IMG/VR virus record: IMGVR_UViG_3300048835_000976
Span: 1 to 35,684 of that record
Reading direction: 5' to 3' (one strand)
DNA: 35,684 nt
DNA from: a virus
In this document: positions 11,172 through 32,891 of the stretch, piece by piece
Position numbering within the stretch: the stretch's first letter is position 1
Layout of the letters: each line of letters opens with the position of its first letter
Position numbers and translations under genes: made by a program
Notes under the pieces: generated by a model
Seen by the model: only the letters and a program-made list of their open reading frames with translations
Database searches by the model: none
What the model was told of the DNA's origin: nothing

Positions 11172-11192
11172 CCATCGGCTTCGCGCCGATGG
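11172..11192 (+). promoter_or_regulatory. 8-bp stem hairpin ahead of the tail tube gene
   Basis: CCATCGGC, loop TTCGC, GCCGATGG form a perfect 8-bp stem ending two bases before AGGAG, the ribosome binding site of the tail tube gene. No T-run follows, so it is not an intrinsic terminator. A 5' stem immediately before a highly expressed gene could mark an mRNA processing or stabilising element; this is inference. Confidence 0.5.
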
Positions 11193-11203
11193 CAGGAGTC
11201 CTC

Positions 11204-11974
11204 ATGTCCACTTATGCCTCATTCCAGGGCCGCGTCTACCTTGGCCGGCGCGACGCGGCCGGCAACCCGATCGAAGTGCGCTCGCCCGGCAACGTCGCCG
11301 AACTCAAGTTGTCGCTGAAGACCGACGTGCTCGAGCACTTCGAATCGCAGACCGGCCAGCGCACGCTCGATCACCGCATGGTCAAGCAGAAGTCGGCGAC
11401 GATCATGCTGACCATCGAAGAGTTCACCAAGGAGAACCTTTCGCTGGCGCTCTACGGCAATCACATCGACACGCAGAGCGGCACCGTGCAGGTCGAGCCG
11501 ATCGGCGCTCCGCTGGCCGTGGGTCATCGCTATCTTCTGGCCCATCCCAAGGTGTCGACCCTGGTGCTCAAGGACAGCGCGACGCCGGCGAAAACGCTGG
11601 TGCTGGGCACTGACTACACCGCGGATCTCGACTTCGGCGCGCTGCAACTGCTGCGACTGGACGATGGCGCCGCGACGCCCGTACCGTTCACGGCGCCGCT
11701 GAAGGCCAGTTACGGGTTCGGCGTGACCACCGAAATCGGCATCTTCACGCAGCCGCTGCCGGAGCGCTTCCTGCGCCTGGAAGGCCTCAACACCGCGCAG
11801 GGCAACGCCAAGGTGCTGGTGGAACTTTATCGGGTGGCGTTCGACCCACTGAAGGAGCTGAACCTGATCTCCGACGAATACAACAAGTTCGAACTCGAAG
11901 GCTCGCTGCTGGCGGACAACACCAAGCCGGTCGATGCGGTGCTCGGGCAGTTCGGCAAAATCGTTCAGCTGTAG
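11204..11974 (+). CDS. Major tail tube protein
   Basis: The ATG at 11204 is chosen over 11189 because AGGAG lies at 11194-11198 with good spacing. The 256-residue protein starts MSTYASFQGRVYLGRRDAAG and contains long beta-rich segments (VAELKLSLKTDVLEHFES, KSATIMLTIEEFTKENLSLA, LIPKLENLISDEYNKFELEG-like end region). This matches phage tail tube proteins of non-contractile tails. The gene sits right before the chaperone pair and is preceded by the largest gap of the tail operon (57 bp), with a hairpin and a strong SD, consistent with high expression. Confidence 0.83.
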   Translation: MSTYASFQGRVYLGRRDAAGNPIEVRSPGNVAELKLSLKTDVLEHFESQTGQRTLDHRMVKQKSATIMLTIEEFTKENLSLALYGNHIDTQSGTVQVEPIGAPLAVGHRYLLAHPKVSTLVLKDSATPAKTLVLGTDYTADLDFGALQLLRLDDGAATPVPFTAPLKASYGFGVTTEIGIFTQPLPERFLRLEGLNTAQGNAKVLVELYRVAFDPLKELNLISDEYNKFELEGSLLADNTKPVDAVLGQFGKIVQL

Positions 11975-14862: not shown

Positions 14863-17800
14863 ATGCCCAACCGCATCTCCCTCCTCGTCGCCTTGGAGGG
14901 CGCGGATGAGGGTCTCAAACGCGCGATTTCTTCGGCCGAGCGCTCGTTCAACGAGATGTCGGCGACCGCGAAGACCGCGGGCGCGAAGGCTGCGCAGGGG
15001 ATGGCGGAGCTCAAGGCGGGAACGGCGGCGCTGGGCGATCAGCTGACTCGTGCGCGGACGCAGTTGCTGGCCTTCGTCGGCGTGTCCTGGGCGACGCAGC
15101 AGGTCACGCAACTGGTGCAGGTTGCCGACCAGTGGAACCTGATGGTGGCGCGCCTGAAGCTCGCGACCGCGGGCCAGCGCGAGTTCGTGATCGCGCAGGG
15201 CGAACTCTTCGCCATCGCGCAGCGCATCGGCGTGCCGCTCGCCGAGGTTTCGACGCTGTATGGCAAGTTGCAGCAGGCCGTTCGTCAACTGGGCGGTGAG
15301 CAAAAGACCGCGCTGTCGCTGACCGAGTCGATCAGCCAAGCGCTCAGGATCTCCGGCGCCTCGGCGTCGGAGGCGCAGTCGTCGTTGCTGCAGTTCGGTC
15401 AGGCGCTGGCGTCGGGCGTGCTGCGCGGCGAAGAGTTCAACTCGGTCGTCGAGAACTCGCCGCGGCTGGCCCAAGCCCTGGCCGATGGCTTGAACGTTCC
15501 GATTGGTCGTTTGCGCAAGCTGGCCGAGCAAGGACAACTGACCGCAGACGTCGTCGTCAACGCGCTGATGTCGCAGAAGGAGAAGCTCGCCGCCGAATAC
15601 GCGCAGCTACCGGTGACGGTCGGCACGGCGTTCGAGCGGCTCAAGAATGCGTTTGCGCAGTGGATCGCCAAGGTCGACGAGTCGACCGGCATCACGCAGA
15701 AGCTGGCAACGGCACTCGATTGGTTGGCGCGCAACTTCGAGACGGTGATGGGTTGGCTCAAGGTCATCGCCGAGATCGGCCTGGCGGTGCTGATCTACCG
15801 CCTGATCCCAGCACTGATCACCGCTTGGCAACTCGCGGGCACGGCTGCGGTGACGGCCGCAGCGTCGACGGCGGCGGCATGGACCACCGCCAACCTGTCG
15901 CTGTCCGCGGCGGTGGCCACAGCAGGCTTGCTGAAAACGGCATTTGCCGTGCTGGCCGCCGCGCTGATCGGCTGGGAGATCGGCACCTGGTTGTCGGAGA
16001 AGTTCGAGATTGTGCGCAAGGCCGGCATCGGCATGGTCCAGGTGTTGGAAACCGGACTGGAGACGCTCAAGTTCTCCTGGGAACGCTTCGCCGCGATCTT
16101 CACCAGCGACACCATCGCGGCCGCCACGCAGCGCCACGAAGAGCGCCTTCGGCAGATGAACGCGATCTTCGCCGAGATGTACGTCGATGCGTCCGAGGCT
16201 GGGCGGGCGGCGCAGCAAGCGGCGACCACGGCAGCCGCCAGTGCCGAGGAAATGGCACGGCGGCTGGAAGCCGTGCGGCAGGGAACGCAAGAAGCGGTCG
16301 GTCGCGGCATCGAAGCCATCGATGCGACCCTGAACAAGCTCAAGAGTCAGATTACGGCCATCGAGCAAGTGGTGACCGCGGCGCAACAAGGGGCGACCCA
16401 GGCGATCTCAGGCATCACCGCGGCATATCAGGGGCTGACCGGTATCGTCGACGCGACCCTGCAGCAGCAGTTGGCCAGCACGCAGGCGCACTATGCGCAG
16501 AAGCACGTCTTGCTGGAGCAGTCGAGCGCATCCGAAGCGCAACTGATCAGGCAGACGACGCAGTTGTTGGTGGAATCGGTGCAGCAACAGTCGGATCTGC
16601 GCGCCCAAGCGCTCACCGAGACGCTGCGCTTGATCGAGCAAGAGGGCCAGGCGCGACGGGTCGCCGCGCAAGGCCAAGCGGAAACCGACGAAGCGCGCCG
16701 CGCTGCGACCCTGCGCGTGGAAAACGAGATCCTGGCCGCCAAGCAACAGGCGCTGGCGCAAGCGGCAGCCGACTATGTGCGCCATGTCGACGCGCTCAAT
16801 GCCGAAGCCAATCGCCATCTGGCCGAGATTCGGCGCATTGAGGAGGAAAAACGCGCGCTGTCGCAGACCACTGAGGACCGGATCCGCGAGTTGCAGCGCT
16901 CGACGATGGGCGAGTACCAGGCCTATCAGGACAAGTTGACCCAGGTCGCCGAACTGCAGCGCAAAGCGCGGGCCGCGATCTCCGAGGGCGAGTTCGAGCA
17001 GGCGATTCAGTACGCCAAACAGGCCCAGGATCTGGCCGCGCAGACCGCCAAGGTAGTCAAGGATGGCGATGCGACCGTCGTCACTCAGAAGCAGGCGGTG
17101 AAGACCGCTATCGATGCGATGCGCGAGAGCGAACAACTGGCGATCCAGGCGCTCGAAGGTGAGGGTCGCGCGCATCAGAAGGCCGCCAGCGAGGCGACTT
17201 CCGCGCGTGGCCAGATCGAGGCCGCGCTGCGCGGCACGCAAGCGCAGATCGAGCAGATTCAGGCGCAACTGGAGACCGGGCTGAAGTTCGCCATCGATGT
17301 CGACAGCAGCAAGCTCGACGCGGCGCTGCGCCAACTCGAAGAAGCGCTGCGCGAGAAGGAATACCTCGTGCGCATCGACGCCGACCTCAAGGCGGCCCAT
17401 GCACAACTGCGCGATCTCGAGGCGCAACTGAAGTACGGCAAGACGCTGCTGGTCAACGCCGATATCAGTCGCGCGAAGTCGGCGCTGGAAACGCTGCAGA
17501 CCTATGCCGATCGCACCGGACAGATCGATTTGAAGGTCGCCACCGAGAAGGCGCAGACCTCGTTGCGTCTGGTCGATAGCCAGATCCGCGCGCTCGACCA
17601 GATCAGGACCGAGTCACAGCATGCGATCAGCACCAACGCCAACCAGGCCCGGAGCGAGATCCAGTCCCTCGACGGCGTGAACACCAGTTCGACGCACACC
17701 ATCTACGTGAAACGGGTCGAACAGAATGCCGCGGGTGGTTTGGTTGGGTCCGGAATGACGGCTCCCCGCGGCTTTGCCAAGGGCGGCTCCGTATTGTCCT

Positions 17801-18843
17801 TCTCGCGCATGAAGTCGGGCGTGGTTCCCGGGTCGGGCGATGGCGACACGGTGCCGCGCGCGCTGGAGGCCGGCGCGTTCGTGATTCGCAAGGCTGCTGT
17901 GCGCAAGTACGGCGCTGAGACGCTGCGCAAGCTGGCTGGCGTCGCGCGCTTTGCGAGCGGCGGATCGGTGCCGGGCAGTTCGACGGGAACTTGGTCTTCG
18001 AGTCCCGCAGGCGCGAGCCCCGCGGGCGCGCCGGGCCCGACGCCTCGGAAGCCCAAACCGGTGGCTGCGACGGATAAGGTCAATCGCGACGTGTCTGAGG
18101 CGCTCAAGCTGATTGAACTTGGCCTGCAGGGCGCGAGGATAGGCCGGGCGCACATGGAGCGGATGAACTGGAGGCTCCCGATCGGCACCCAGAGCCTGAG
18201 AACCGATCCGATCGACATTCAGGCGTTTCACGACCGCGACTATCTCCAGCGACTGCTGCGAGTCCGCAAGCTGACCAGCCTGGAGTCAGGCTCGGTCGAC
18301 ACCATCAAGGGACGCTGGCGCACGGCGATGGCGCAGGCGCAGGTCGCCGGCGTGGATCTCGAGCGGCAACTGATGGAGTACATCGAGCGCGAGACCGAAC
18401 GACAGATTTACTTCGCCCGCGGCGGCCTGGCCAAGTCGGACAGCGTGCCGGCGATGCTGACGCCCGGCGAGTACGTGGTCAGCCGTGAGGCCGTCAAACG
18501 ACTGGGTGCCGGGTTCTTCGCCGCGATCAACGCCATGAAAGCACCGGCCCGCGAGATCGCCACTAAAGTTCAGGGCTTCGCACGCGGGGGTTTGGTCAGT
18601 CCGGACGCATCGACGCGGGTCGCGACAGCGCTGCGCACCATGCCGACCGACATCGACGATCTGGCGGCATCGGGATTGCGGCCGCGCCGCACACCGCGGC
18701 TCGACTGGGACGACGCGCCGCCGCCCAGCAAGACTATTCGTGTCGAACTGGCCAGCGGAGCGCGCACTGTGAGCGCGACGATCCCCGCGCGCGACGAGTC
18801 GCGATTGCTGGATTTGCTGCGCGAAGCGCAAGCCCGAAGCTGA
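14863..18843 (+). CDS. Tail tape measure protein
   Basis: This 1326-residue protein sets tail length and helps DNA ejection. Residues about 65-270 match the tape measure N-terminal domain (WATQQVTQLVQVADQWNLMV, EVSTLYGKLQQAVRQLGG, GEEFNSVVENSPRLAQALAD). Hydrophobic segments at about 295-322, 325-350 and 355-378 could insert in the host inner membrane. Residues about 400-930 are long Ala/Gln/Glu-rich helices, probably coiled coil. C-terminal Gly-rich motifs FAKGGSV (about 970) and ARGGLAKSDSVPAMLTPGEY (about 1185) are typical of tape measures. At roughly 1.5 A per residue the length suggests a tail near 200 nm, an estimate from the general rule. The start has no clear SD, perhaps because of the insertion just upstream. 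Confidence 0.95.
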   Translation: MPNRISLLVALEGADEGLKRAISSAERSFNEMSATAKTAGAKAAQGMAELKAGTAALGDQLTRARTQLLAFVGVSWATQQVTQLVQVADQWNLMVARLKLATAGQREFVIAQGELFAIAQRIGVPLAEVSTLYGKLQQAVRQLGGEQKTALSLTESISQALRISGASASEAQSSLLQFGQALASGVLRGEEFNSVVENSPRLAQALADGLNVPIGRLRKLAEQGQLTADVVVNALMSQKEKLAAEYAQLPVTVGTAFERLKNAFAQWIAKVDESTGITQKLATALDWLARNFETVMGWLKVIAEIGLAVLIYRLIPALITAWQLAGTAAVTAAASTAAAWTTANLSLSAAVATAGLLKTAFAVLAAALIGWEIGTWLSEKFEIVRKAGIGMVQVLETGLETLKFSWERFAAIFTSDTIAAATQRHEERLRQMNAIFAEMYVDASEAGRAAQQAATTAAASAEEMARRLEAVRQGTQEAVGRGIEAIDATLNKLKSQITAIEQVVTAAQQGATQAISGITAAYQGLTGIVDATLQQQLASTQAHYAQKHVLLEQSSASEAQLIRQTTQLLVESVQQQSDLRAQALTETLRLIEQEGQARRVAAQGQAETDEARRAATLRVENEILAAKQQALAQAAADYVRHVDALNAEANRHLAEIRRIEEEKRALSQTTEDRIRELQRSTMGEYQAYQDKLTQVAELQRKARAAISEGEFEQAIQYAKQAQDLAAQTAKVVKDGDATVVTQKQAVKTAIDAMRESEQLAIQALEGEGRAHQKAASEATSARGQIEAALRGTQAQIEQIQAQLETGLKFAIDVDSSKLDAALRQLEEALREKEYLVRIDADLKAAHAQLRDLEAQLKYGKTLLVNADISRAKSALETLQTYADRTGQIDLKVATEKAQTSLRLVDSQIRALDQIRTESQHAISTNANQARSEIQSLDGVNTSSTHTIYVKRVEQNAAGGLVGSGMTAPRGFAKGGSVLSFSRMKSGVVPGSGDGDTVPRALEAGAFVIRKAAVRKYGAETLRKLAGVARFASGGSVPGSSTGTWSSSPAGASPAGAPGPTPRKPKPVAATDKVNRDVSEALKLIELGLQGARIGRAHMERMNWRLPIGTQSLRTDPIDIQAFHDRDYLQRLLRVRKLTSLESGSVDTIKGRWRTAMAQAQVAGVDLERQLMEYIERETERQIYFARGGLAKSDSVPAMLTPGEYVVSREAVKRLGAGFFAAINAMKAPAREIATKVQGFARGGLVSPDASTRVATALRTMPTDIDDLAASGLRPRRTPRLDWDDAPPPSKTIRVELASGARTVSATIPARDESRLLDLLREAQARS

Positions 18844-18846
18844 CCC

Positions 18847-19254
18847 ATGGAACTGCGCCAACTGTCATCCGGCCAGACACTGACGCTGCCGGACGATCTG
18901 CTGTGGGCGGACGAGCACGCGTGGACGCCTGCGGTGGCGTCCACCACCTATCTGATCACCGGCGCGCTGCTGGTTCAGTCAGCGACACGGCACGCCGGGC
19001 GGCCGATCACGCTGGTCGGCCCCAGCGACATGGCTTGGGTGACGCGCGCCACCGTGGCCGCGCTGCATGAGTGGGCGGCATTGCCCCTGACGCTCGACGA
19101 TGGGCGATTCGAGTTGCGGTTGCACGATGACCGCCTGTTCGAAGTGGCATTCCGCCACGCCGACCTTTGCGTCGAAGCGGAACCTGTGCTGGGTTTCCCG
19201 GCGCGATCCGACGCCGACCGCTACCGATTGACGCTGCGCTTCCTGCAGCTCTAA
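18847..19254 (+). CDS. Tail-tip region protein of unknown fold (135 aa)
   Basis: The 135-residue protein starts MELRQLSSGQTLTLPDDLLW and ends in DRYRLTLRFLQL. It is beta-rich with charged loops (GRFELRLHDDRLFEVAFRH) and has no membrane segment. It lies three bases after the tape measure stop, where distal tail proteins are usually encoded, so a role at the tail tip is inferred from position. No named family recognised. Confidence 0.65.
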   Translation: MELRQLSSGQTLTLPDDLLWADEHAWTPAVASTTYLITGALLVQSATRHAGRPITLVGPSDMAWVTRATVAALHEWAALPLTLDDGRFELRLHDDRLFEVAFRHADLCVEAEPVLGFPARSDADRYRLTLRFLQL

Positions 19255-19270
19255 ACCTGATAGGACCCAC

Positions 19271-22200
19271 ATGCCGATTCTCGTAGGCGACGTGAAGCTC
19301 GTCGCCAGCCAGGTCATGGACGACGTCGCCGAAGGCGGCGGCGCACCCACCTCGACCGTCATCGTCGATGGCGCGAGCAACTCGCTGTTCAACGACATCT
19401 CGGAAATGGACCGCGCCGGTGGCCGGGTCAACCTGCGCAAGGTGTTCGCCAGCATCCAGACCAACACCACGGACACGTATCTGGGCGGCAACGTCATCGT
19501 CGCCGAAGCGCCGAGCGATCCGCGCGTCGCGGTCACGATCTTCTCCACCGACGAGGTCTTCGACCGCCGCACGAATGCGCGCGACCGCATCGAGGCCTAT
19601 CTCAACAAAGGCTCGCTGTGGAACGGCTATCTGCTGGAGAACCACATCACCGGCCAGCGCAGCATCCAGTTGTTCCAGCGTGTCGGCGCCGAGTTGCCGG
19701 CCATCGGCAAGACCCTGTACCTAGTCGCCAACGAGGGACTGGCGAACGAGTTTGCGCAGTACATCCGTGTCACCCGCGTCGCGTCTGAAACTCGAACTTT
19801 CAGCTATGGCTCAGGCAGTGGCATCGTTGACTACGAGGCGGTGGTCGTCACCTGCGATCTGTCGGACGCGCTGCGCTTCGACTTCCCCGGCTCCCCGCCG
19901 GACCGCCTGTTCACGATGGTGGCAGGCAAGACCAAAACACGCGACACCGTCGTCGCCGATGCCGCCAAGTACTGCGGCGTGGTCAAGACCACCCAACCGA
20001 TCGCGATTGGCGACGTGGCGGCCAGCGTCACCAGCATCTTCACCCAGTTGGTGCCCTCGGCCCAGACCGAAACGCCACTGCTCGATCTGACCGCGGGCGG
20101 CACGTCCGAAGCCTTGGTCGAATCGGCCAATGGCACGGTGAGCTACACAACTTCGGTCGGATTCAGCGCCGCCACGATCCTGTCGGTCGGCAATGCGATC
20201 CAGCCCGGCACGCTGTCGATCAGCGTCAGCGGCGCCACACTCATCGATAACGGCGGCCAACTGATGTCCGGCGCGACCGTCATCGGCACGGTGAACTACG
20301 CGCGCGGCCAGGTGGCGATGGCCACCAGCGCGCCGAACTACGCCGGCAACAAGACCATCACCTTCCGCCCCGCGGCTGCGCCGATCCGCGTGGCCGACAC
20401 CGCGGGCGTGCGCGTCGACATCGAGAACCGCGCCTACAACTACGTGCTCACCATTCTGCCGAGCCCTGCGCCCGGCACCCTGCAGGTGAGCTATCGCGCG
20501 CAGGGCAAATGGTACGACCTGCGCGACAACAGCGCGGGCGTGCTCAAGGGCAGCAGCCCGGAGTACGGCGTCGGCACCGTGAACTACAGCTCGGGAACGG
20601 TCGCCGTGACGGTGGGCGCGCTACCCGATGTCGGCAGCGAGATCGTCTACGCCTGGGGCGGCAAGGCCAACTACTTCAACCGCTCCGACCAGACCATCGC
20701 GCCGCCCTCGGTCACGTTGCAGCTGGCGCAGGGCGGCATCACGCCGCAGTCCGTGACGATCACCTGGAACGACGGCGCGCCGCGCACCGCCACCGACGAT
20801 GGCGCAGGACACATCACCGGCGCGGCGACCGGCACCATCCACTACCAGTCCGGACTGATCCAGATCAGGCCGACCGCGCTGCCGGCCGGTGGCCAGACCT
20901 ACAACGTCGCCTACACCTGGGGCCCGCCGAGCGAGGAGGAGTTCCACGCGCCGATGCGCGATGGCACAGGTCGCATCGACGTCGAGGTGGAATTCGACGG
21001 CCTGATTCCGGGCACGGTCGAACTGGAATGGAATCTGCTGATCGAGACCTTCGATTACATCTCGACCACGCCGGCCGAACTGCAACTGGTGCAACCCGTC
21101 GATCCGATCAAGATCGTCAGGGACGACCGCAACGGCAACCTCAAGGACACGCAAGGGGTTGTCTACGGCACCGTGAACTACGCCACCGGCGTGCTGCGCT
21201 TCCTGCCCGACACCACGGTGCGCATTCCCGTGGCCCGCTATCTGGTAACCCAGATCGGACTCACGCGCATTGCCGACGGCACCCTGGTTCCGGTCTATCG
21301 CAATGTGTTCTCGCACTGGGAGTACATCACCGCGGGCGCGGCCATGCCCATCGACGAATCGGCCTGGGCCAAGGTGCGCTACCGCGCCGCGGGAACGTCC
21401 AATGCGGTCACCGCGACCTTCACCGCCACCGGCTTGGCACTGGATCTGACGCCGAGTTTCGCTGAACCCATCGTTCCCGGCAGCGTCGGTTTCACGCTGG
21501 GCGGCAAGACCTACTTCGACCGCCTGGGCAGCCTGTACTACGATCTCAACCCGGTCACTGGCGCGGCGACTCTGGCCGGCGCCCTCAACTACGCCACCGG
21601 CGCAGTAAATCTCACGGCATGGGTGCCCGGCCAGCCCACGGCGATCCAGTTGCGCTCGCTGCTCACCAGTCTCGATGGCACGCCGGTCGATGAAGTCACC
21701 TTCCGCATTCCGGCCTCGCCGGTGCGGCCGTCGAGCCTGCAACTGCTGGCCACGCGGCTGACCGGCGGCACCATCAATGTCAGTGCCGACAACCACGGCA
21801 TCATCGCTGGCGCGGGCATTACCGGCGCCATCGACTACGAGACCGGCGTCGTGCGCGCGCGGTTCGGATCCTGGGTGATCGCGGCTGGCAACGAGGACGA
21901 GATCTGGTTCGATCCCGATGCGGTCGTGATGCTGGATGGCGTGGCCAAGGTGTTCAAACCGGCGCCGGTGTTTGCCGACACCATCAAGTACAACGCGGTC
22001 GCGTACTCCTACCTGCCGCTCGATGCCGATCTGATCGGTCTTGATCCCGTCCGCTTGCCCCAGGACGGGCGCGTGCCGATCTTTCGGATGGGCGATTTCG
22101 CGGTGATCGGCCATACCGAGACGGTCGGCCCGTTCACCGCGAGCGCCGGCCAGATCATCGACTGCGACCGGGTGCGCCTCTCGCGCGTTCGCGTGCTCGA

Positions 22201-22876
22201 TGCCAACGGCGTGGTCATCACCGCCGGATACTCGGTCGACCTGGAAGCAGGGCTGGTGACGTTCACGAGCGTCACGGGACTCGCCCAGCCGGTCACGGTG
22301 GAGCACCGCATCGAGGACATGGCGCAAGTGTCCGACGTGCAGATTTCCGGGCGCCTGGCGTTCACCCGACAAATCACGCACGACTATCCGACCGGTTCCC
22401 GCATTTCCTCGGCGCTGGTGGCGGGCGATCTGCGCGCCTACGTGTCGACACTGTTCGATCAGGCGACTTGGAACGGCGCGTTCACCGACGCCCTCACCGG
22501 CAATGCGGCCACGGCCACGTTCAACGACGTGCTGGCGCCGATCACGGTGACGAACGCCGGCGCCATCACCGAACGCTGGGCCGTCCAGTTCACCAACACC
22601 ACGGCATTTCAGGTCATCGGCGAACACGTGGGCGTCATCGCCACCGGCACGACGGCCAACGATCTGGCGCCGATCAATCCAGCGACAGCGAAGCCCTACT
22701 TCACGCTGCGCGCCCTCGGCTGGGGCTCGGGCTGGGCGGCGGGCAATGTGCTGCGCTTCAACACCATTGGCGCGCTGTTCCCGGTGTGGGTCGTGCGAAC
22801 GATCCAGCAGGGCCCCGAAACCGTCACCCGCGATTCCTTCACCTTGCTGGTGCGCGGCGACGTGGATCGCCCGTGA
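19271..22876 (+). CDS. Giant repeat-containing tail protein (1201 aa)
   Basis: The protein starts MPILVGDVKLVASQVMDDVA, 16 bases after the previous stop. An N-terminal part (about 1-250) contains EMDRAGGRVNLRKVFASIQT. Below this a motif of the form G-(T/A)-(V/I/L)-(N/H/D)-Y-x3-G-x-(V/L/I) recurs at about residues 339, 435, 521, 633, 770 and 852, with a weaker copy near 986. Spacing is 80-140 residues, suggesting a chain of beta-sandwich modules. Gene order (after tape measure, before tip genes) suggests a tail-tip or straight fibre structural protein. No peptidase or glycan-degrading motif is seen. I do not recognise a named family. Confidence 0.75.
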   Translation: MPILVGDVKLVASQVMDDVAEGGGAPTSTVIVDGASNSLFNDISEMDRAGGRVNLRKVFASIQTNTTDTYLGGNVIVAEAPSDPRVAVTIFSTDEVFDRRTNARDRIEAYLNKGSLWNGYLLENHITGQRSIQLFQRVGAELPAIGKTLYLVANEGLANEFAQYIRVTRVASETRTFSYGSGSGIVDYEAVVVTCDLSDALRFDFPGSPPDRLFTMVAGKTKTRDTVVADAAKYCGVVKTTQPIAIGDVAASVTSIFTQLVPSAQTETPLLDLTAGGTSEALVESANGTVSYTTSVGFSAATILSVGNAIQPGTLSISVSGATLIDNGGQLMSGATVIGTVNYARGQVAMATSAPNYAGNKTITFRPAAAPIRVADTAGVRVDIENRAYNYVLTILPSPAPGTLQVSYRAQGKWYDLRDNSAGVLKGSSPEYGVGTVNYSSGTVAVTVGALPDVGSEIVYAWGGKANYFNRSDQTIAPPSVTLQLAQGGITPQSVTITWNDGAPRTATDDGAGHITGAATGTIHYQSGLIQIRPTALPAGGQTYNVAYTWGPPSEEEFHAPMRDGTGRIDVEVEFDGLIPGTVELEWNLLIETFDYISTTPAELQLVQPVDPIKIVRDDRNGNLKDTQGVVYGTVNYATGVLRFLPDTTVRIPVARYLVTQIGLTRIADGTLVPVYRNVFSHWEYITAGAAMPIDESAWAKVRYRAAGTSNAVTATFTATGLALDLTPSFAEPIVPGSVGFTLGGKTYFDRLGSLYYDLNPVTGAATLAGALNYATGAVNLTAWVPGQPTAIQLRSLLTSLDGTPVDEVTFRIPASPVRPSSLQLLATRLTGGTINVSADNHGIIAGAGITGAIDYETGVVRARFGSWVIAAGNEDEIWFDPDAVVMLDGVAKVFKPAPVFADTIKYNAVAYSYLPLDADLIGLDPVRLPQDGRVPIFRMGDFAVIGHTETVGPFTASAGQIIDCDRVRLSRVRVLDANGVVITAGYSVDLEAGLVTFTSVTGLAQPVTVEHRIEDMAQVSDVQISGRLAFTRQITHDYPTGSRISSALVAGDLRAYVSTLFDQATWNGAFTDALTGNAATATFNDVLAPITVTNAGAITERWAVQFTNTTAFQVIGEHVGVIATGTTANDLAPINPATAKPYFTLRALGWGSGWAAGNVLRFNTIGALFPVWVVRTIQQGPETVTRDSFTLLVRGDVDRP

Positions 22877-22904
22877 CGCCAACTGATTCCCAGGAGCTTA
22901 ATTC

Positions 22905-24170
22905 GTGAGCAACAAGGTCAAATGGATGCACAGCAACATGGTCGGCGCGCCGGTGCTGACCAACAACTGGGGCAGCCTGACGGCGATGCTCGACGCACTG
23001 CTCGTCAACGGCTTCAACCTCAAACCCGTGCTCGCGCTGACCCGCAACGACGCCACCGCGACCGCGACGATGAGTTCGGGTCATGGTTTCCTGGTCGACC
23101 AGGTGGTGCGCATCGAGGGCTGCGAGGAGCCGGCGTACAACGGCGAGTTCACGATCACCGCCATCACCGCAAATAGCATCAGTTTCAGCGTTTCGGGCGA
23201 GCCCGCATCGCCCGCGACCACGGTACTCGGGATCACCGCCAAGATCGCGCCGCTGGGATTGGAGATCGCCTTCACGGGCGAGAACAAGCGCACCTTTCGC
23301 AGCCCCAATCCGCTCTCCAACCGACCGTTCCTGCGGGTCGATGACAGCTTGCCGGAGGGTTACACGACCACCTGGGCGAAGTTTGCGCGCGTGACGCTGG
23401 CCGAGGACATGGTTGACGTCGATACCTTCGTCGGCGCGCGCGCACCATTCGATCCGGCGAACCCGAATGCCAACGAACTGCCATCGGGCAGCGGCACGTC
23501 GATGTACTCAGGTTGGTTCAAGTGGTACTTCGCTCGCAACAACACCGCCGAGACCTATGGCGACAATGGCGCCGATGCTAGGAGTTGGGTGCTGGTAGGC
23601 GATGACCGCGGGTTCTTCCTGGCGTGCGCTTCCGGCTGGGGTGGTGATCGCCGGGTGCTCTACACATTCACCGACTTCGACAGCTACAAGCCGGGGGACA
23701 ACTACGCGTCCTTCCTGACCGCATCGGATCGCTACCACAGCGTCAGTGCGTGGCCTTACAGCTATCCGAACCAGGAATCCTATTCGACGCATTCGCTGGA
23801 TACGACCGGCAAGGTCTGCATGCGCGACTACACCCAGGTCGGCGGCAATGTTCGCCTGGGCCTGTTCTCGTTGAACGATGGCAACAACCAGAACATCTCC
23901 GGGCGCTCAGGTCACATCCCGTTCCCGAACGGTCCCGACTACGGTCTGATCCTGCACCCGATCTACCTGCGCGAAACCACGGGCCACATGCGCGGGATGC
24001 TTCCGGGCATGTACTGGATTCATCAGAACCAGCCGTACGAGCACATGACGCTGATCGACCAGGTCCTGGGTTACCCCGGGCGCAAGTTCCTGATTGTGAC
24101 GCTGGACTACGCCCACGAGGGCAACACCAGCGGGTTCGCGTTCGACATCACGGGGCCGTGGAGGCCCTGA
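22905..24170 (+). CDS. Tail structural protein of unknown family (421 aa)
   Basis: Starts with GTG at 22905, with CAGGAG eight bases upstream. It begins MSNKVKWMHSNMVGAPVLTN. The first ~110 residues hold an Ig-like segment (GHGFLVDQVVRIEGCEEPAY, ITANSISFSVSG). The remainder is rich in aromatic residues, Asn and Gly, typical of virion beta-structures (SGWFKWYFARNNTAETYGDN, MYWIHQNQPYEHMTLIDQVL). No transmembrane helix or enzyme motif. Role in the tail tip is inferred from neighbours. Confidence 0.72.
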   Translation: MSNKVKWMHSNMVGAPVLTNNWGSLTAMLDALLVNGFNLKPVLALTRNDATATATMSSGHGFLVDQVVRIEGCEEPAYNGEFTITAITANSISFSVSGEPASPATTVLGITAKIAPLGLEIAFTGENKRTFRSPNPLSNRPFLRVDDSLPEGYTTTWAKFARVTLAEDMVDVDTFVGARAPFDPANPNANELPSGSGTSMYSGWFKWYFARNNTAETYGDNGADARSWVLVGDDRGFFLACASGWGGDRRVLYTFTDFDSYKPGDNYASFLTASDRYHSVSAWPYSYPNQESYSTHSLDTTGKVCMRDYTQVGGNVRLGLFSLNDGNNQNISGRSGHIPFPNGPDYGLILHPIYLRETTGHMRGMLPGMYWIHQNQPYEHMTLIDQVLGYPGRKFLIVTLDYAHEGNTSGFAFDITGPWRP

Positions 24171-24173
24171 TCG

Positions 24174-25145
24174 GTGGCTTATCCCCTGGACGAGAGCTTC
24201 GACGCCGGCATTCCTGCGGGCTTTGCCAGCAATGGCGGGGCCGGCGGCATCACCGCGACCTGGAACGCAGGTGCGCACGCAGTCGATCTGGTGCTCACGC
24301 AGGCGCAGAACTTCTGGCGGATCGATGCGGCCGAGGTCGCGGATAACTTCTGGTTTGAGATCGACGCCGAAGTAAGGGCCTTGACCTACAGTTCGACCTG
24401 TTTCGGCTTCTGGCTATGGACTGGGTCGGGAACCTACGAGGGCCACCGCCTGACCGTTTGGCAGCAGCAGTGGCATCACAGCTTATGGGATGCTCATGGC
24501 AATCAGTCCGAACTGACTGCGCACGCGCCCGCACCATGGGCAGTGACCGGTGCTCGCCGCACGCTGCGCATCGACGTGAAGCGCGGCGTCGACGGCGTCT
24601 GGCGGTACCGCCTCAGCGAAAACGGCGACGTCGTGTGGGAAGACTACAAGCGGCACTACGCGAGCTTCCGGCCGAGCATCTACGGCTACGGCCTGACCCT
24701 GCGTGTGCATCGCGTGTCCGGCGGCGTGCCGAGCGCGCTACCCGAGGCACCACCCGCGCAGTACCAAGCGCTGCCCATGCGACTGGGCCGCACACATCCG
24801 GTACCGGACCTTGCGGCGCTGCAGCGGTTCTCCCACCGTGCCCTCCATCGCCTCGCTGGCACGCGCAATCACTACTACGCCGGCGATCACCACATCACCG
24901 GTACGGTGAAGGAAAAGGGCGTTCCGGATGACCGGCCAGTAGCACGCCGAGTGCTGTTGTTCGACGAGCGCACCTACGCCGTCGTGCGCGAGACCTGGAG
25001 CGATCCTGTCAGCGGTGGCTACTGCTTCGAGAAGATCAGTCCGGTACCGCGCTACGTCGTGATTGGCTACGACTACAGGCACAACTTCCGAGCGGTCATC
25101 GCCGACAACCTGCGCGCTGAGCCGATGCAGGCTGCGCCGCCGTGA
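24174..25145 (+). CDS. Tail-tip protein with lectin-like N-terminus and transthyretin-like C-terminus
   Basis: Starts with GTG at 24174, three bases after the previous stop, and has 323 residues. The N-terminal half (DESFDAGIPAGFASNGGAGG, WRIDAAEVADNFWFEIDAEV, RTLRIDVKRGVDGVWRYRLS) looks like a concanavalin/LamG-type beta sandwich, a fold that often binds glycans. The last ~75 residues (ITGTVKEKGVPDDRPVARRV, YAVVRETWSDPVSGGYCF) resemble carboxypeptidase-regulatory or transthyretin-like domains. Host surface binding is therefore plausible, but no catalytic residues are evident. Fold calls are from pattern only. Confidence 0.68.
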   Translation: MAYPLDESFDAGIPAGFASNGGAGGITATWNAGAHAVDLVLTQAQNFWRIDAAEVADNFWFEIDAEVRALTYSSTCFGFWLWTGSGTYEGHRLTVWQQQWHHSLWDAHGNQSELTAHAPAPWAVTGARRTLRIDVKRGVDGVWRYRLSENGDVVWEDYKRHYASFRPSIYGYGLTLRVHRVSGGVPSALPEAPPAQYQALPMRLGRTHPVPDLAALQRFSHRALHRLAGTRNHYYAGDHHITGTVKEKGVPDDRPVARRVLLFDERTYAVVRETWSDPVSGGYCFEKISPVPRYVVIGYDYRHNFRAVIADNLRAEPMQAAPP

Positions 25146-25531
25146 TCCAGATCTCGGACCCACTCAACGACTACCGGCTGCAAAGCGTCATCACTTTCCT
25201 GGCGCTCGGCACCGAGCAAGCCCGCGCTCATCTTTACGCCGGGCCGCGCCCGAGTTTTGGCGCGCCGCCGCAAGGGCCGCTGCTGGCCTCCATCGTGCTC
25301 GCCGAACCGCTGGGCAGCGTCGCTGATGGCTTGCTCGAAGTGGCACCAAGCAACGAAGCGCTGATCCTGACCACCGGAGAGGCCACGTGGGCGCGCATCG
25401 TCAACGGGCAGGGCACGCTGGCGTGGGATTGCGATGCGTCCGATCTGGAGGGCCCCGGCGAACTGCGCCTGCCCACGACCACACTGTACGCGGGCGGCTA
25501 CACCCGCATCCTGACGGGACTGCTGGGGTGA
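25142..25531 (+). CDS. Small tail-tip protein of unknown function (129 aa)
   Basis: GTG start at 25142 overlaps the previous stop by four bases. The protein starts MIQISDPLNDYRLQSVITFL and is mainly beta (LYAGPRPSFGAP, LLASIVLAEPLGSVADGLLE, TLYAGGYTRILTGLLG). No recognised domain; position in an unbroken tail operon supports a virion or assembly role. Confidence 0.62.
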   Translation: MIQISDPLNDYRLQSVITFLALGTEQARAHLYAGPRPSFGAPPQGPLLASIVLAEPLGSVADGLLEVAPSNEALILTTGEATWARIVNGQGTLAWDCDASDLEGPGELRLPTTTLYAGGYTRILTGLLG

Positions 25532-25537
25532 TCGCCG

Positions 25538-27424
25538 ATGGCGGCTGTCGATCTGCGCTTCGCCCATCCACCGGGCAGCGCTCACCTGGTGTTCGGTGGC
25601 GATCCGACCGGGTCGGCGCCACCACTCGATGCGCAGTTGGTCAGCACACTGCCGGCGCTGCGCTTCGAAGCACTGGTCATCCCGAATGCGTCAGCGACGT
25701 TGGTCGCCATGTTCCCGGCGTTGGAGATGCTGGTCGAGGGGCGATACCAGTCTCGGGCCGCACGTCCGCTGGTGGGCAGCAACAGGTCGGCTTGGCAACG
25801 CGGTCGCGGGTTCGAGGACGGGGCCGAGCATCGCACCGCATCCACGGCCCGCCACCCGTCGCAGGCGCGGACGTCCTGGCGAACAGGGCAATCGCACGAC
25901 GCCAACGTAACCACGCGGCGCGCGGCGACGTTGATGCGCGCACCGGTGTCGGCGACGGCGCGGTTTCACGGCGCGGTTCCGCAATCGCCGGGTGCGCTCC
26001 GGGTTCCGCATAGCGAATCGCTCCACCTGCGAACGGCAGGCCCGGTGGCCTATGCGAATGCCGCCCGCATGGACGTGCTGGAACGTCGCGTGCGCCATGA
26101 GGACGGCCTGCGAGATCGTCGTCCGCCCATAAGCTGTCGCTTCGACGTGGCCCAGGCTCACCCAAGCCTGCGCTTCTTCGAAGCGATCCAGGTCGCCACA
26201 ACCATGCGCCGCTGGATGGCCGCGCGCTGGCAGAACGCGATGCGGCCGCCGCCAGGGCGCCCTCCAGTACGCCCGGATGACCCCGATCCACCGTTCGTTC
26301 CCTGCTACACGCCGAATCCGAACCTGCTGTTTGCCGAAATGGCGACGACGCAGGGCCATCTGGTCTTCGTCTGCGAAAACCACCCTGGGCCCGGCCAAGG
26401 CGGCCCGGTCGTCGTTCCGATCCGAGGGGTCTATGTCGTGCTGAACCACGTGACGCTGCATCGATGGCCGGATGGCGTGCCGGCTCCGGTGATCTCGCTG
26501 TCGCTGAGTCTCGACGTCGACTCCTGGGCTTGGGGCTTCGAGGCCACGCTGCCTGCCATTGCCGAGGCCTTGATCGCCCCGGCAGATGGGGCGCCTCCGG
26601 TGGAACTGGTCGCTCACATCAACGGCACCGATTTTCGCGTGCTGGCCGAGAACCTGACCCGTGAGCGCAGCTTCGGCGAGGCCAGCCTTCGTCTGTCCGG
26701 GCGCGGGCGCACGGCGGTGTTGTCCGCGCCCTACGCGCCGGTGATGTCGTTCGCCAATTCACAGCCGCGAACCGCACGGCAGTTGATGGATGACGTACTC
26801 ACCATCAACGGTGTGCCGCTGGGCTGGAGCATCGACTGGGGCCTGCCGGACTGGAATGTGCCGGCAGGCGTGTTCGCCCACCAAGGCACCTGGATCGATG
26901 CGCTGGCCGCCATTGCTGAGGCGCCCGGTGGCTATCTGCTGCCGCATCCGTCCGAGGCGATCCTGCGGGTGCGCCATCGATACCCGGTGGCGCCCTGGGA
27001 CTGGCATGCCGTGACCCCTGATCTGATCCTGCCGGTCGATGCGGTCTCGCGCGAATCCCTGCGCTGGCTCGAAAAGCCCGCCTACAACCGGGTGTTCGTA
27101 TCTGGCCAGAGCGCCGGTGTGCTCGGCCAGGTCACGCGCACCGGTACGGCAGGAAACGTGATCGCACCGATGGTGGTCGACGCGTTGATCACCGAGGCCG
27201 CCGCGGCACGCCAGCGCGGCACTGCGATCCTGGCCGACACGGGTCAGCAGTTCGAAGTGGGCCTGCGTCTGCCCGTACTGCCGGAAACCGGCATCGTCGA
27301 GCCGGGCACCTTTGTCGAGTACCAGGACGGGAGCGTGTCGCGGCTCGGTCTGGTGCGTTCCACGCGGATCGAGGCGGGGTTCCCGGAAGTCTGGCAAACC
27401 CTCGGGGTGGAATGCCGTGCATAA
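25538..27424 (+). CDS. Probable tail hub/tip protein with repetitive linker (628 aa)
   Basis: ATG 25538 gives MAAVDLRFAHPPGSAHLVFG. Residues about 70-245 are unusually rich in Arg, His, Ala and Trp with degenerate units such as SAWQRGRGFEDGAEHR, TSWRTGQSHDANVTTR and RRWMAARWQNAMRPPPGRPP, and then a Pro-rich bridge. Residues about 260-628 form an ordered part (MDDVLTINGVPLGWSIDWGL, WIDALAAIAEAPGGYLLPHP, NRVFVSGQSAGVLGQVTRTG) that resembles tail hub proteins of the gp27/late-control kind in layout. Function as the hub is inferred. The coding frame in the repetitive part is supported because it is continuous with both flanks. Confidence 0.72.
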   Translation: MAAVDLRFAHPPGSAHLVFGGDPTGSAPPLDAQLVSTLPALRFEALVIPNASATLVAMFPALEMLVEGRYQSRAARPLVGSNRSAWQRGRGFEDGAEHRTASTARHPSQARTSWRTGQSHDANVTTRRAATLMRAPVSATARFHGAVPQSPGALRVPHSESLHLRTAGPVAYANAARMDVLERRVRHEDGLRDRRPPISCRFDVAQAHPSLRFFEAIQVATTMRRWMAARWQNAMRPPPGRPPVRPDDPDPPFVPCYTPNPNLLFAEMATTQGHLVFVCENHPGPGQGGPVVVPIRGVYVVLNHVTLHRWPDGVPAPVISLSLSLDVDSWAWGFEATLPAIAEALIAPADGAPPVELVAHINGTDFRVLAENLTRERSFGEASLRLSGRGRTAVLSAPYAPVMSFANSQPRTARQLMDDVLTINGVPLGWSIDWGLPDWNVPAGVFAHQGTWIDALAAIAEAPGGYLLPHPSEAILRVRHRYPVAPWDWHAVTPDLILPVDAVSRESLRWLEKPAYNRVFVSGQSAGVLGQVTRTGTAGNVIAPMVVDALITEAAAARQRGTAILADTGQQFEVGLRLPVLPETGIVEPGTFVEYQDGSVSRLGLVRSTRIEAGFPEVWQTLGVECRA

Positions 27425-29266: not shown

Positions 29267-31369
29267 CTACGACTTCAAGTCCCCCAGGAACTCTGACGCT
29301 GGCGAGACGCCGGACACATGCAAAAACTCGCGTGCCCGCGTACAAGCCACATAGAGCAGATGCCGCTCCGTGGCGTAGACCTCGTCGAGATCGCTCTCGT
29401 CGCTCACGCCCTCGATGCGGGATTGCAGCGGGATGACCTCGTCGTCGCAGGCCATGACCGCCACAGCGCGGAACTCCAGGCCCTTCGCGAAGTGCATGGT
29501 GGCGACAGATGCCTTCCCGGTCACCGATTGCAGTTTTTCGTCCAGCACGACGAAGGGCAACCCCGCGCGTTGCAGCGCCTGTTCGGCGCGATCCAGTTCA
29601 GCGGCGCTGCGAACGAACACGCCGATTTCATGCGGGGCCAGTCGGCCCTCGGTTTGAGCCCTGAGCCAGTCGCCGACACCTTCGATCTCCAGCGAATGCG
29701 ATTTGAACTCGCGGACGCTGGGCGCGGGGCCGTTGAACACTGACACCGTGCCCTTGCGGGACTCGGTGTTGCCATCCACATCGGCGATCTCTTCACCGAG
29801 CAGCCGGTCCGCCTGCGCACGAATCTGATGCGAAGTGCGGTAGTTGACGGTTAGGGATCTGGACCGTCCGCGCACATCCACTCCGAGAGACTTCCACGAG
29901 AACGCTGTCTGGAAAATTCTCTGGCCCAGGTCGCCTGCGAAGAACAACGCATTCGGGCGCGCGCCGCCCAGGGCGGCCAGAAACTTCAACTGGGCCACCG
30001 ACACGTCTTGCGCCTCATCCAGCACCACATGCTCGAAAGGCGGATGCTTGCGCTTGGGTATTTCGCTCGCCAGCCGCGTGAAGACGCCTGCCATCGAGAC
30101 CAGTCCTTCGGCCTTCAGTTCCTGACGGACTGCGTCGAACACCGACCACAACGTCGATCGCTGTGCGTCAGACAATCGGGTCTTGCGCCCCAGCCGCTTG
30201 ACGTCTCGGTAATCCTCCCACGTCTCCAACTGCCACGCATCGACGACCTGCTGCCACTCGCCGAACAGAAACGTCTCGCCGAAGCGCGAACTGGATGCCC
30301 CCGCGCGATGCTTCGCCAGTCGCGCCTTCACATCGGCGACGGTCGCGATTCGAGCCTTGCCGAAACTGGACTCATAAAGCCGCAGGCCCACGGCATCCAG
30401 CGCGGCGACTTCGATGCGCTCGCCCAGCCTTGGCTCCGAGCTGATCAGGTGTCGCAGCTTCGCGCGCAGTGCGGTTGCAAGACCTTCAGAAAATGTCGTC
30501 AACAGCACCCGTGCATCGACATTGTCGCGCGCCAGGTGGGCCGCACGATGCAGGGCCACGATGGTCTTGCCGGTGCCCGCCGAGCCGGAAACGCGCGCCG
30601 GGCCGTTGTAGTCGCGCTGGACGAACTGACGCTGATCCGGGTGCAGGAAGATCGTCCACTTCTCCCACGGCGCCTCGAAGGCGCGCTCCAGTTCCTCCAC
30701 GTTTGCAACAACACGGAAGCGGCGCAGCGCGTCGGGGTGCTCGAAGGGATCGGCATTCGGGGCCACCGCCACCGGTGCCACCTTCGGCGTGCCGCCGGTC
30801 GCCAGTTCCAGCAGGGCTTCGCCGGCCTCGGCGGGAAGATGGTCGACCAGATCGAGCAGCGAATCTTCGTCCGCGCCGCGCACTTCGTCCAACCATTCCG
30901 CCGGAACACCGAAACCGAGCAGCAACTGCTCTGGCGTATGGGCGAACAGCAGGGGCTTGGGTGTGCGCTTGGCGGATTCGGCGCGTAGCGGCGTCGGCGC
31001 TTCCACCTCGACCACTTTCCGCACGCGGATTTCCTCCACGCGCTCACGCACCTCCACGAACTGCGCCGCTCCAGTGGTCGGGTGTACTTCCAGTTTCCGT
31101 CGTTCAGCCCACGCGTAGGCCTTGTCGTGGTGATCGACGTAGCACAACAGCAGGCTTCTGGATGACTTGTGCACCATCAGCCGGAGGTCGGTACCAACCC
31201 GTACTGACCAGAAACGTGGGTCCTTGGCACGGTCGAGCTTGTGGAAGCTCATGCCAGGGCTGGCTGGATTGAGCTGCAAGTCGAAGGCGGTGCTCTTGAC
31301 GGCTTTTTGCTCGTCGCCGGTCAGCCGCGCGAGACTATCGGTGAAGGTGTCGGCGATGCGGAAGTCCAT
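29267..31369 (-). CDS. UvrD/Rep-like DNA helicase with N-terminal RelE-like domain
   Basis: This is a 700-residue superfamily 1 helicase. Residues about 1-97 resemble the RelE/ParE toxin fold (FTDSLARLTGDEQKAVKSTA, KLDRAKDPRFWSVRVG, LLLCYVDHHDKAYAWAERRK). The helicase core follows: Walker A SGSAGTGKTIVAL with Lys268, Walker B VVLDEAQD with Asp451/Glu452, VNYRTSHQIR (motif IV area), MHFAKGLEFRAVAV (motif V) and LLYVACTRAREFL (motif VI), so ATPase motifs are intact. It lies four bases after the 127-residue gene, last in a four-gene operon with a methyltransferase. Whether the RelE-like part is an active RNase or a protein-contact module cannot be told; a role in defence or DNA processing is inferred. 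Confidence 0.9.
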   Translation of the reverse strand: MDFRIADTFTDSLARLTGDEQKAVKSTAFDLQLNPASPGMSFHKLDRAKDPRFWSVRVGTDLRLMVHKSSRSLLLCYVDHHDKAYAWAERRKLEVHPTTGAAQFVEVRERVEEIRVRKVVEVEAPTPLRAESAKRTPKPLLFAHTPEQLLLGFGVPAEWLDEVRGADEDSLLDLVDHLPAEAGEALLELATGGTPKVAPVAVAPNADPFEHPDALRRFRVVANVEELERAFEAPWEKWTIFLHPDQRQFVQRDYNGPARVSGSAGTGKTIVALHRAAHLARDNVDARVLLTTFSEGLATALRAKLRHLISSEPRLGERIEVAALDAVGLRLYESSFGKARIATVADVKARLAKHRAGASSSRFGETFLFGEWQQVVDAWQLETWEDYRDVKRLGRKTRLSDAQRSTLWSVFDAVRQELKAEGLVSMAGVFTRLASEIPKRKHPPFEHVVLDEAQDVSVAQLKFLAALGGARPNALFFAGDLGQRIFQTAFSWKSLGVDVRGRSRSLTVNYRTSHQIRAQADRLLGEEIADVDGNTESRKGTVSVFNGPAPSVREFKSHSLEIEGVGDWLRAQTEGRLAPHEIGVFVRSAAELDRAEQALQRAGLPFVVLDEKLQSVTGKASVATMHFAKGLEFRAVAVMACDDEVIPLQSRIEGVSDESDLDEVYATERHLLYVACTRAREFLHVSGVSPASEFLGDLKS

Positions 31370-31372
31370 CGT

Positions 31373-31756
31373 CTAGGCTGCGTCGCCTGCCGCATGCAGG
31401 CAGCCGCGCTGGACCGCGTGGTCGCGCAGTCGCTTGGCCAGCTTGCGACATTCCTTCTCCGGTCGCTGGCCAAAGTCGATCACTGCGTGCGCGGGCGATT
31501 CCGTCAGCGGATCGGGGACATACGCCAAACCGACGCCGGCGCTCTCTGCGCCGGACACGGCCCAAACACCTTGAGACTGGAAGCCCAAAGCTTCGGTGTA
31601 GTGGCGGTATGACGCTTCCGCCGAGATCTGATCGCCGTCGTACACCGACAATCGCCCGTTGTCCTTCGGAAACGGGAAGAAGGCCTGACTGGTGAGCTGA
31701 TCGTCCTTCAAGAACTGCGGATGCACCTGGCGCAGCAGCAGGGTGTCGTCGTTCAT
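31373..31756 (-). CDS. Conserved protein of unknown function in methyltransferase-helicase operon (127 aa)
   Basis: ATG 31756 overlaps the previous gene's stop (ATGA) and gives MNDDTLLLRQVHPQFLKDDQ; a longer in-frame start is rejected because it lies inside the upstream gene. Features: TSQAFFPFPKDNGRLSVYDG, ISAEASYRHYTEALGFQSQG, and a C-terminal helix ECRKLAKRLRDHAVQRGCL. It is soluble with no catalytic motif that I can name. I have the impression that similar sequences recur next to other genes of this kind, but cannot verify this. Tight coupling on both sides argues that it works with its neighbours. Confidence 0.78.
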   Translation of the reverse strand: MNDDTLLLRQVHPQFLKDDQLTSQAFFPFPKDNGRLSVYDGDQISAEASYRHYTEALGFQSQGVWAVSGAESAGVGLAYVPDPLTESPAHAVIDFGQRPEKECRKLAKRLRDHAVQRGCLHAAGDAA

Positions 31757-32853: not shown

Positions 32854-32891
32854 GCGATTTTGGCCATCGAACTGGCTTCTTGAATCACAGG

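What the first reader, a model, noticed from the sequence alone, without database searches (positions are those of the whole stretch)
19271..22876. 1201-residue tail protein with at least six recurring G-T-V-N-Y modules
The motif recurs at about residues 339, 435, 521, 633, 770 and 852, with a weak copy near 986. The units in between are divergent but of similar length. It may be a modular beta-sandwich rod whose length can evolve by adding units. I know no named family for it.
Basis: seen in the sequence. Interest (0 to 1): 0.5.

Follow-up and report, generated by a model that had tools for sequence, protein, structure and literature searches.

The report
Phage tail-tip protein, six repeated domains
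This is a large structural protein from the tail of a bacterial virus, carrying six related beta-sandwich domains in a row; most long relatives keep six, but some carry fewer and several lineages encode the same protein as two separate chains broken between the domains.

Summary
The 1201-aa ORF at 19271-22876 carries six copies of one homologous unit at exactly the stated residues. The weak copy at 986 is real but different: it belongs to an Ig-like domain homologous to the decoration domain of the phage's own tail-tube protein (hhalign 97.2%; plain HMMER down to E 4e-9 in relatives).

The protein is a member of phrog_6128, a family without known function, encoded just after the tape-measure gene and one small gene. 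Orthologs in two phages were found in virions by published mass spectrometry.

The 'modular rod that grows by adding units' idea is partly supported. Of 173 long relatives, 169 keep six units. Distant syntenic orthologs show about two; Acidovorax phage ACPWH shows four. In 72 fetched loci (70 distinct contigs) the gene is natively split into two ORFs, nearly always between units 4|5 or 2|3, and nearly always with a ribosome-binding site. The 4|5 split changed more than once.

A chain that can be cut in the middle is unlikely to be a load-bearing rod. Best reading: a distal-tail-type tip protein anchored separately at both ends, with Ig-like decoration domains between. The fold of units 1-6, copy number and position in the particle are inferred, not shown.

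The parts
19271..22876 (+). 1201-aa tail protein (phrog_6128)
19271..19618 (+). N-terminal conserved domain, residues 1-116; found in all three length classes compared
19598..19957 (+). residues 110-229: predicted OB-like domain, aligned by VIA to JBD30 (Z 8.7) and Chi (Z 8.4) tail-tip chains and to a K1 lyase (Z 9.9); no counterpart in the 703-aa class
20201..20371 (+). unit U1 (residues 311-367, motif at 339)
20468..20662 (+). unit U2 (residues 400-464, motif at 435); best conserved unit
20699..20725 (+). place equivalent to the natural gene break U2|U3 (about residues 477-485) in Marinobacter phage AS1-type relatives
20738..20923 (+). unit U3 (residues 490-551, motif at 521)
21005..21220 (+). 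unit U4 (residues 579-650, motif at 633)
21212..21388 (+). stretch equivalent to the natural gene break U4|U5 (within residues 648-706; long predicted strands 648-666 and 672-691, block pLDDT 63-76)
21473..21670 (+). unit U5 (residues 735-800, motif at 770); counterpart in the short classes
21719..21880 (+). unit U6 (residues 817-870, motif at 852); counterpart in the short classes
21929..22870 (+). C-terminal conserved region, residues 887-1200
22130..22315 (+).
11189..11974 (+). tail tube (major tail) protein, phrog_807 / NCBIfam tail_tube_6XGR; its residues 106-178 match U7
14863..18843 (+). tape measure protein
18847..19254 (+). 135-aa protein, phrog_4408; a homologous closed ORF was found in 187 of the loci held at that point
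22905..24170 (+). 421-aa protein (phrog_9998; weaker match to phrog_9600, tail assembly protein)
25538..27424 (+). 628-aa tail protein (phrog_6079); probable hub by place only. A Psychrobacter phage Y8A record labels the tail protein at the end of its cassette Mu gpP-like; homology of that protein to this one was not tested

Best explanation
It is a structural protein of the siphophage tail tip that plays a distal-tail-protein-like (ring or adaptor) part between tail tube and hub. Its two conserved ends are each anchored in the tip. The N-terminal domain carries an OB-like insertion. The C-terminal region carries the same Ig-like decoration domain as the tail tube. Between them lies a string of six Ig-like units that most likely decorates the tip and offers docking surface for fibre and accessory proteins encoded just downstream. 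The string is not a load-bearing rod, because nature cuts the chain between units 4|5 or 2|3 and still keeps both halves as adjacent genes. Shown by computation: six homologous units; the tail-tube kinship of the 954-1015 domain; synteny; near-fixed number in the long class and fewer units in distant classes; native gene splits with ribosome-binding sites. Shown by others: presence in virions for orthologs in two phages. Inferred: Ig-like fold of units 1-6, about three copies per particle, ring position, docking role, non-covalent pairing of split halves.
For: Position: tape measure, a small gene, then this gene in the window and in phages 1/44, MuM16-1, HS6, S1, AS1, PCA1, Lodos, LR797314 and B8b; in Vibrio 1.055 and ACPWH the upstream gene is annotated 'coil containing' and 'TolA'. 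Virion presence: MuM16-1 p45, the ortholog at L192:3468-5942, was found in particles by mass spectrometry (PMC8541194, passages). Both B8b pieces were found, sequence count 12 each, 21 and 38 spectra (PMC4294664, table passage). Spectra per residue are 59/1087 = 0.054 against 74/1403 = 0.053 for the tape measure and 290/254 = 1.14 for ORF21, which sits where the tube protein should; so copy number is like the tape measure's (my arithmetic, one label-free experiment). Tail-tube kinship: residues 954-1015 vs tube decoration domain 97.2%, E 4.3e-11; reversed control 3.9%. C-terminal region vs tube protein 94.0%, E 1.3e-7, 128 columns; reversed 0.9%. The family HMM alone hits tube ORFs at E 4.1e-9 (L160) and 3.4e-7 (L111), at model positions about 926-1012. 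The JBD30 decoration domain is Ig-like (PMC11445458, one section read); the two tube families match at 100%. OB-like domain 110-229 aligns with JBD30 and Chi tail-tip chains, Z 8.7 and 8.4. In 18 of 21 relatives that I chose, it is the best conserved of the tape measure and the genes downstream of it, as expected of scaffold rather than receptor binder. Splits: 72 loci after three were dropped; restart 9-13 nt after the stop in 70 of 72; SD-like motif in 69 of 72 against 9% of background ATGs.
Against: No sequence match to the JBD30 distal tail protein profile and no significant match to a solved chain. The best Z (9.9) for the OB-like domain is a polysaccharide lyase, so that domain is not specific to distal tail proteins. 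The tube-core part of the C-terminal match is weak alone: 19.0%. Units 1-6 do not match the decoration domain directly (0.2-13.8%), so their Ig-like fold rests on U7-U1 kinship and the model. Array rows in the VIA table reach at most Z 5.8, a common level. The model's pTM is 0.59, so domain packing is unsure. Split halves have not been seen in a particle; B8b's two pieces lie on two contigs and may be one gene. In Psychrobacter phage Y8A no tape measure is annotated in the stretch seen upstream.
Confidence: 0.58

Rival explanations
1. A side tail fibre: the N terminus anchors it and the six units form a rod that holds a receptor-binding C terminus away from the tail.
For: Linear array of similar units between two conserved ends. 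Both ORFs of one relative are annotated 'tail fiber' (Marinobacter phage AS1). Unit number differs between distant classes.
Against: The C-terminal region is among the most conserved parts and carries a tail-tube-like domain. The gene is cut inside the array in 72 loci, which would free the distal part. Unit number is six in 169 of 173 long relatives. Six VIA rows starting at residues 229-235 and ending at 1047-1048 with only 67-74 aligned residues suggest that both flanks build one barrel.
Confidence: 0.2
2. A baseplate hub or central-fibre protein of the lambda gpJ kind, with extra Ig-like domains.
For: Residues between 235 and 1048 align with lambda gpJ residues 490-562, Z 6.4, 67 residues. 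Large beta protein in the tail-tip operon.
Against: Z 6.4 is in the range of common arrangements, and an EF-Tu barrel scores 6.0. Another gene, the 628-aa one, fits the hub place (by place and a label only). No sequence match to the JBD30 hub profile (at most 5.5%).
Confidence: 0.15
3. The two-ORF relatives are decayed or mis-sequenced genes and say nothing about function.
For: Two loci do show ordinary breaks away from the unit boundaries: a stop at residue 110 in L137 and a frame change at 916/917 in L135. L369 has a further break in its second half.
Against: 69 of 72 restarts have an SD-like motif against 418 of 4917 background ATGs; the gap is 9-13 nt in 70 of 72; 20 of 72 restart in another frame.
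Confidence: 0.04

Closest known systems
PHROG phrog_6128 (unknown function)
   Same: Full-length match 1-1200 of 1200 positions, 1401.7 bits
   Different: No difference found; the family has no assigned function
Distal tail proteins of JBD30 (gp49, phrog_1082) and Chi (chi_066, taken as the 557-residue chain 8vjh_B by length and place)
   Same: Place after the tape measure; OB-like domain; the JBD30 protein also imitates the tail-tube protein (PMC11445458, passages)
   Different: No sequence homology found; here 1201 aa with six extra units, and tube kinship seen only in the C-terminal region
Ig-like decoration domain of siphophage tail-tube proteins (phrog_807, NCBIfam tail_tube_6XGR)
   Same: Homologous to residues 954-1015
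   Different: Sits singly on each tube subunit; here one copy lies in another tail protein that also carries six distantly related units
Evolved distal tail proteins (evoDit) of phages of Gram-positive bacteria
   Same: A tail-tip ring protein that has taken up extra beta domains (search listing with abstract starts only; details recalled)
   Different: evoDit inserts are carbohydrate-binding modules, for which no specific search was made here; most bacterial records with this gene are titled as proteobacteria
Distal tail protein gp17 of Shigella phage Sf11
   Same: DTP whose C-terminal extension docks the tailspike (PMC12724387, passages and one section)
   Different: 457 aa; homology to the window protein not tested

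Membership tests
phrog_6128 | Full-length profile match | tested here: met
   E 0, 1401.7 bits, 1-1200 of 1200
Distal tail protein (DTP) | Gene place between tape measure and hub | tested here: met
   one small gene lies between; the hub is assigned by place only; Y8A shows no annotated tape measure upstream
Distal tail protein (DTP) | Tail-tube-like fold | tested here: inconclusive
   decoration part matches (97.2%; HMMER E 4.1e-9); core strands only 19.0% alone, 94.0% as part of the longer alignment
Distal tail protein (DTP) | Sequence kinship to a proven DTP (JBD30 gp49 profile) | tested here: inconclusive
   no match (0.0-2.2%), but the same set-up gave only 12.6% for gp47 vs gp48, which both match phrog_687, so this negative is weak
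Distal tail protein (DTP) | OB-like domain as in JBD30/Chi | tested here: inconclusive
   Z 8.7 and 8.4, 83-84 residues, but a K1 lyase scores 9.9
Distal tail protein (DTP) | Ring bound to last tube disc | not testable with these tools
   needs cryo-EM
Ig-like phage tail domains | Homology to a solved Ig-like domain | tested here: inconclusive
   supported for residues 954-1015 through the tube family; units 1-6 reach 0.2-13.8%
Tail fibre rod with variable unit number | Unit number varies among relatives | tested here: inconclusive
   six in 169 of 173 long relatives; two in 27 of 34 short ones; four in ACPWH
Tail fibre rod with variable unit number | Unbroken chain from anchor to tip | tested here: not met
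   native two-ORF genes in 72 loci; the window's own chain is unbroken
evoDit | Carbohydrate-binding module inserted in a Dit | not tested
   no CBM-specific search was made; Pfam gave no match at E 1

The most novel reading that the evidence does not exclude
The Ig-like string is a portable, self-assembling seam: several phage lineages have independently turned one tail-tip protein into two chains cut at the same inter-unit joint (or fused two into one), and the halves rejoin in the particle through unit-unit contacts. The string would share its origin with the tail tube's own decoration domain.
Probability: 0.35. Interest if true: 0.6.

Novelty: new variant of a known kind. Interest (0 to 1): 0.42.

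Why it matters
It gives a functional reading to a common tail family without one (552 of 585 matched stretches in one viral scan encode a relative) and says what the recurring motif is. The naturally split relatives make a sharp, cheap test of whether beta-domain strings on phage tails bear load or merely decorate, and mark places where such proteins tolerate a chain break.

Tried and rejected
Single-sequence model of residues 300-922: pLDDT 30.9, not used; a hasty submission that spent one of two jobs. Foldseek against PDB and the viral library: no usable whole-length match (query TM at most 0.12 in the rows shown). PDB by sequence or profile with the family, units and neighbours: only the 129-aa neighbour has a significant hit (9rkv_A, E 6e-12). 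The unit's best hit, 9ukm_A 'Gp23' (E 0.029), is a lead only. hhalign against JBD30 tail proteins: nothing; sensitivity doubtful (see Membership tests). Internal duplication N- vs C-terminal: 0.6%, rejected. Scan with the Vibrio 819-aa form: no relative found. VIA: families not listed there are not excluded; antibody and EF-Tu rows are read as common folds.

Literature searches that could have shown this architecture or its gene fission (listings only) listed no paper on it; neither spelling of phrog_6128 occurs in the 10 listed of 15 papers found. Most subscription papers are not held.

I also corrected a wrong statement about VIA rows and added exceptions.

Full report
Observation. The ORF 19271-22876 is real and translates to 1201 aa. 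All 15 pairs of unit profiles match at 84-98% probability, three of them over only 14-20 columns; 30 reversed-unit controls reach at most 26.7% and 48 other-segment controls at most 8.7%. The majority residues of the unit are roughly PGSL, G, DxGxGxL, GTxxYxxG.

Structure. A model built from 70 rows has mean pLDDT 85.8 and pTM 0.59 and is nearly all beta. VIA-align placed residues 110-229 on the JBD30 (Z 8.7) and Chi (Z 8.4) tail-tip chains and, higher, on a K1 lyase (Z 9.9). The JBD30 range 244-326 nearly equals its OB domain V, residues 252-320 (PMC11445458, passages). Six rows (two lambda gpJ, four EF-Tu entries) begin at residues 229-235 and end at 1047-1048 with only 67-74 aligned residues, which suggests one barrel built from both flanks of the array; the table gives only first and last aligned residue, so this is suggestive.

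The weak seventh copy. Residues 954-1015 match the Ig-like decoration domain of the window's own tail-tube protein at 97.2% (E 4.3e-11; reversed 3.9%), and match unit 1 at 82.2%. The C-terminal region matches the tube protein at 94.0% over 128 columns (alignment). In the short class the same place gives 19.9%. With plain HMMER the family model hits 96 of 208 tube ORFs at E up to 10, the best at 4.1e-9 and 3.4e-7; in the 15 best rows shown the matches lie at model positions 926-1012, apart from two minor ones; no other kind of ORF lies between E 1e-8 and 0.01. Units 1-6 show no direct match to the decoration domain.

Unit number. Of 190 loci examined, 173 give closed ORFs over 1100 aa, 155 of them of 1185-1208 aa, the window's own copy and near copies included; the other 17 are truncated by contig ends, split or broken. 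With a unit HMM built from this family, 169 of 173 show six units at i-E below 0.01 and four show five, two of these with the sixth below threshold. Syntenic orthologs of 690-712 aa (Pseudoalteromonas HS6 type, one more cut by a contig edge) and 815-824 aa (Shewanella and Vibrio phages) keep about residues 1-116 and 887-1187. Of these 34, 27 show two units above threshold, 5 one and 2 none; six of the last seven show two if E up to 1 is allowed. Acidovorax phage ACPWH shows four, two in each of two ORFs; S1, Lodos, LR797314 and Y8A show six, Curvibacter PCA1 five.

Native splits. Of 325 fetched stretches searched, 247 show one ORF, 74 two, one three and 3 none. At least 23 of the 325 are second fetches of contigs already held, and the set was enriched on purpose by queries with split genes, so the share is not a prevalence. 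I dropped L135 (frame change), L137 (stop at residue 110) and L160 (its second hit is its tube protein), leaving 72, or 70 distinct contigs (L036/L315 and L046/L353 are the same). Many are near copies. Unit tallies at i-E below 0.1 are 4|2 in 59, 2|4 in 10, and 1|4, 2|2 and 4|1|1 once each. Breaks fall in linkers in 69 of 72; the three others touch the edge or a loop of unit 4; units cover 376 of 560 array residues. The restart follows the stop after 9-13 nt in 70 of 72, with an SD-like motif in 69 of 72 against 418 of 4917 background ATGs; 20 of 72 restart in another frame, which rules out read-through for those. On a quick tree of the C-terminal region (89 representatives of 304 labelled, seven partial ones dropped), the split state needs at least five changes; the 4|5 split needs three, at least two forced by starred branches; the 2|3 split is one clade. 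So the independent events are few. Holding the ten 4|5 rows together is rejected (p-AU 1.3e-94; label set by gene structure, test run after the tree was seen). The tree cannot tell fission from fusion and contains long branches.

Place and role. Order is tube, tape measure, 135 aa, this gene, 421, 323, 129 and 628 aa. In 18 of 21 loci that I chose, this protein is the best conserved of the tape measure and downstream genes; exceptions are L006, L021 and L026. Counting the tube protein too it is best in 14 of 21, two genes being missing in one of these, L070. Within it the N-terminal domain, the C-terminal region and unit 2 are best kept. Orthologs were found in virions of MuM16-1 and B8b. The small gene before it is not in the MuM16-1 list and has no peptide figures in the B8b table, which leaves this protein as a candidate for the ring next to the tube; small proteins are easily missed. 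Spectra per residue equal those of the tape measure (my arithmetic).

Mechanism. Both ends are conserved; the array between them differs in number over long times and can be cut. A tether cannot be cut, a decoration can. I therefore prefer an adaptor of the tail tip anchored at both ends, with the Ig-like string on its outside, possibly gripping the fibre-type proteins encoded downstream. The docking role itself has no direct evidence.

Noticed in passing
window 29267-35684, minus strand: Likely defence cassette carried by the phage: Type III-like methyltransferase (930 aa, PADLOC 1500 bits), PDC-M32A (366 aa), PDC-M32B (144 aa) and a UvrD-like helicase (700 aa).
   Followed up: partly
window 25142-25531: 129-aa protein matches chain A of 9rkv (Agrobacterium phage 7-7-1, entry deposited for the tail fibers) at E 6e-12; perhaps its garland protein, which is my inference.
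   Followed up: partly
L021, L026 versus window: Identity drops at the start of this gene: tube protein 77% and 135-aa gene 65-68%, but this protein 50-51% and the 323-aa gene 34-37%, as if a recombination boundary lay there.
   Followed up: no
window 25538-27424, N-terminal half: The family consensus of the 628-aa tail protein has a long Gln/Ala/Pro-rich stretch with repeated WQxA-like words, unusual for a hub.
   Followed up: no
window 20621-22882, minus strand: A 753-aa open frame lies antisense to this gene, probably a by-product of codon usage.
   Followed up: no
L295:1501-5415 (Acidovorax phage ACPWH): In the split ortholog units 1 and 4 are not detected and the ends at the break are rich in Pro or in Ser/Thr.
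   Followed up: partly
window 20468-20662 (residues 400-464): Unit 2 is better conserved than the other units, in distant relatives near the level of the two ends, hinting at a specific partner.
   Followed up: no
L395 (Psychrobacter phage Y8A): The stretch upstream of this gene shows no annotated tape measure between a 245-aa ORF and the small gene; the tape measure may lie elsewhere.
   Followed up: no
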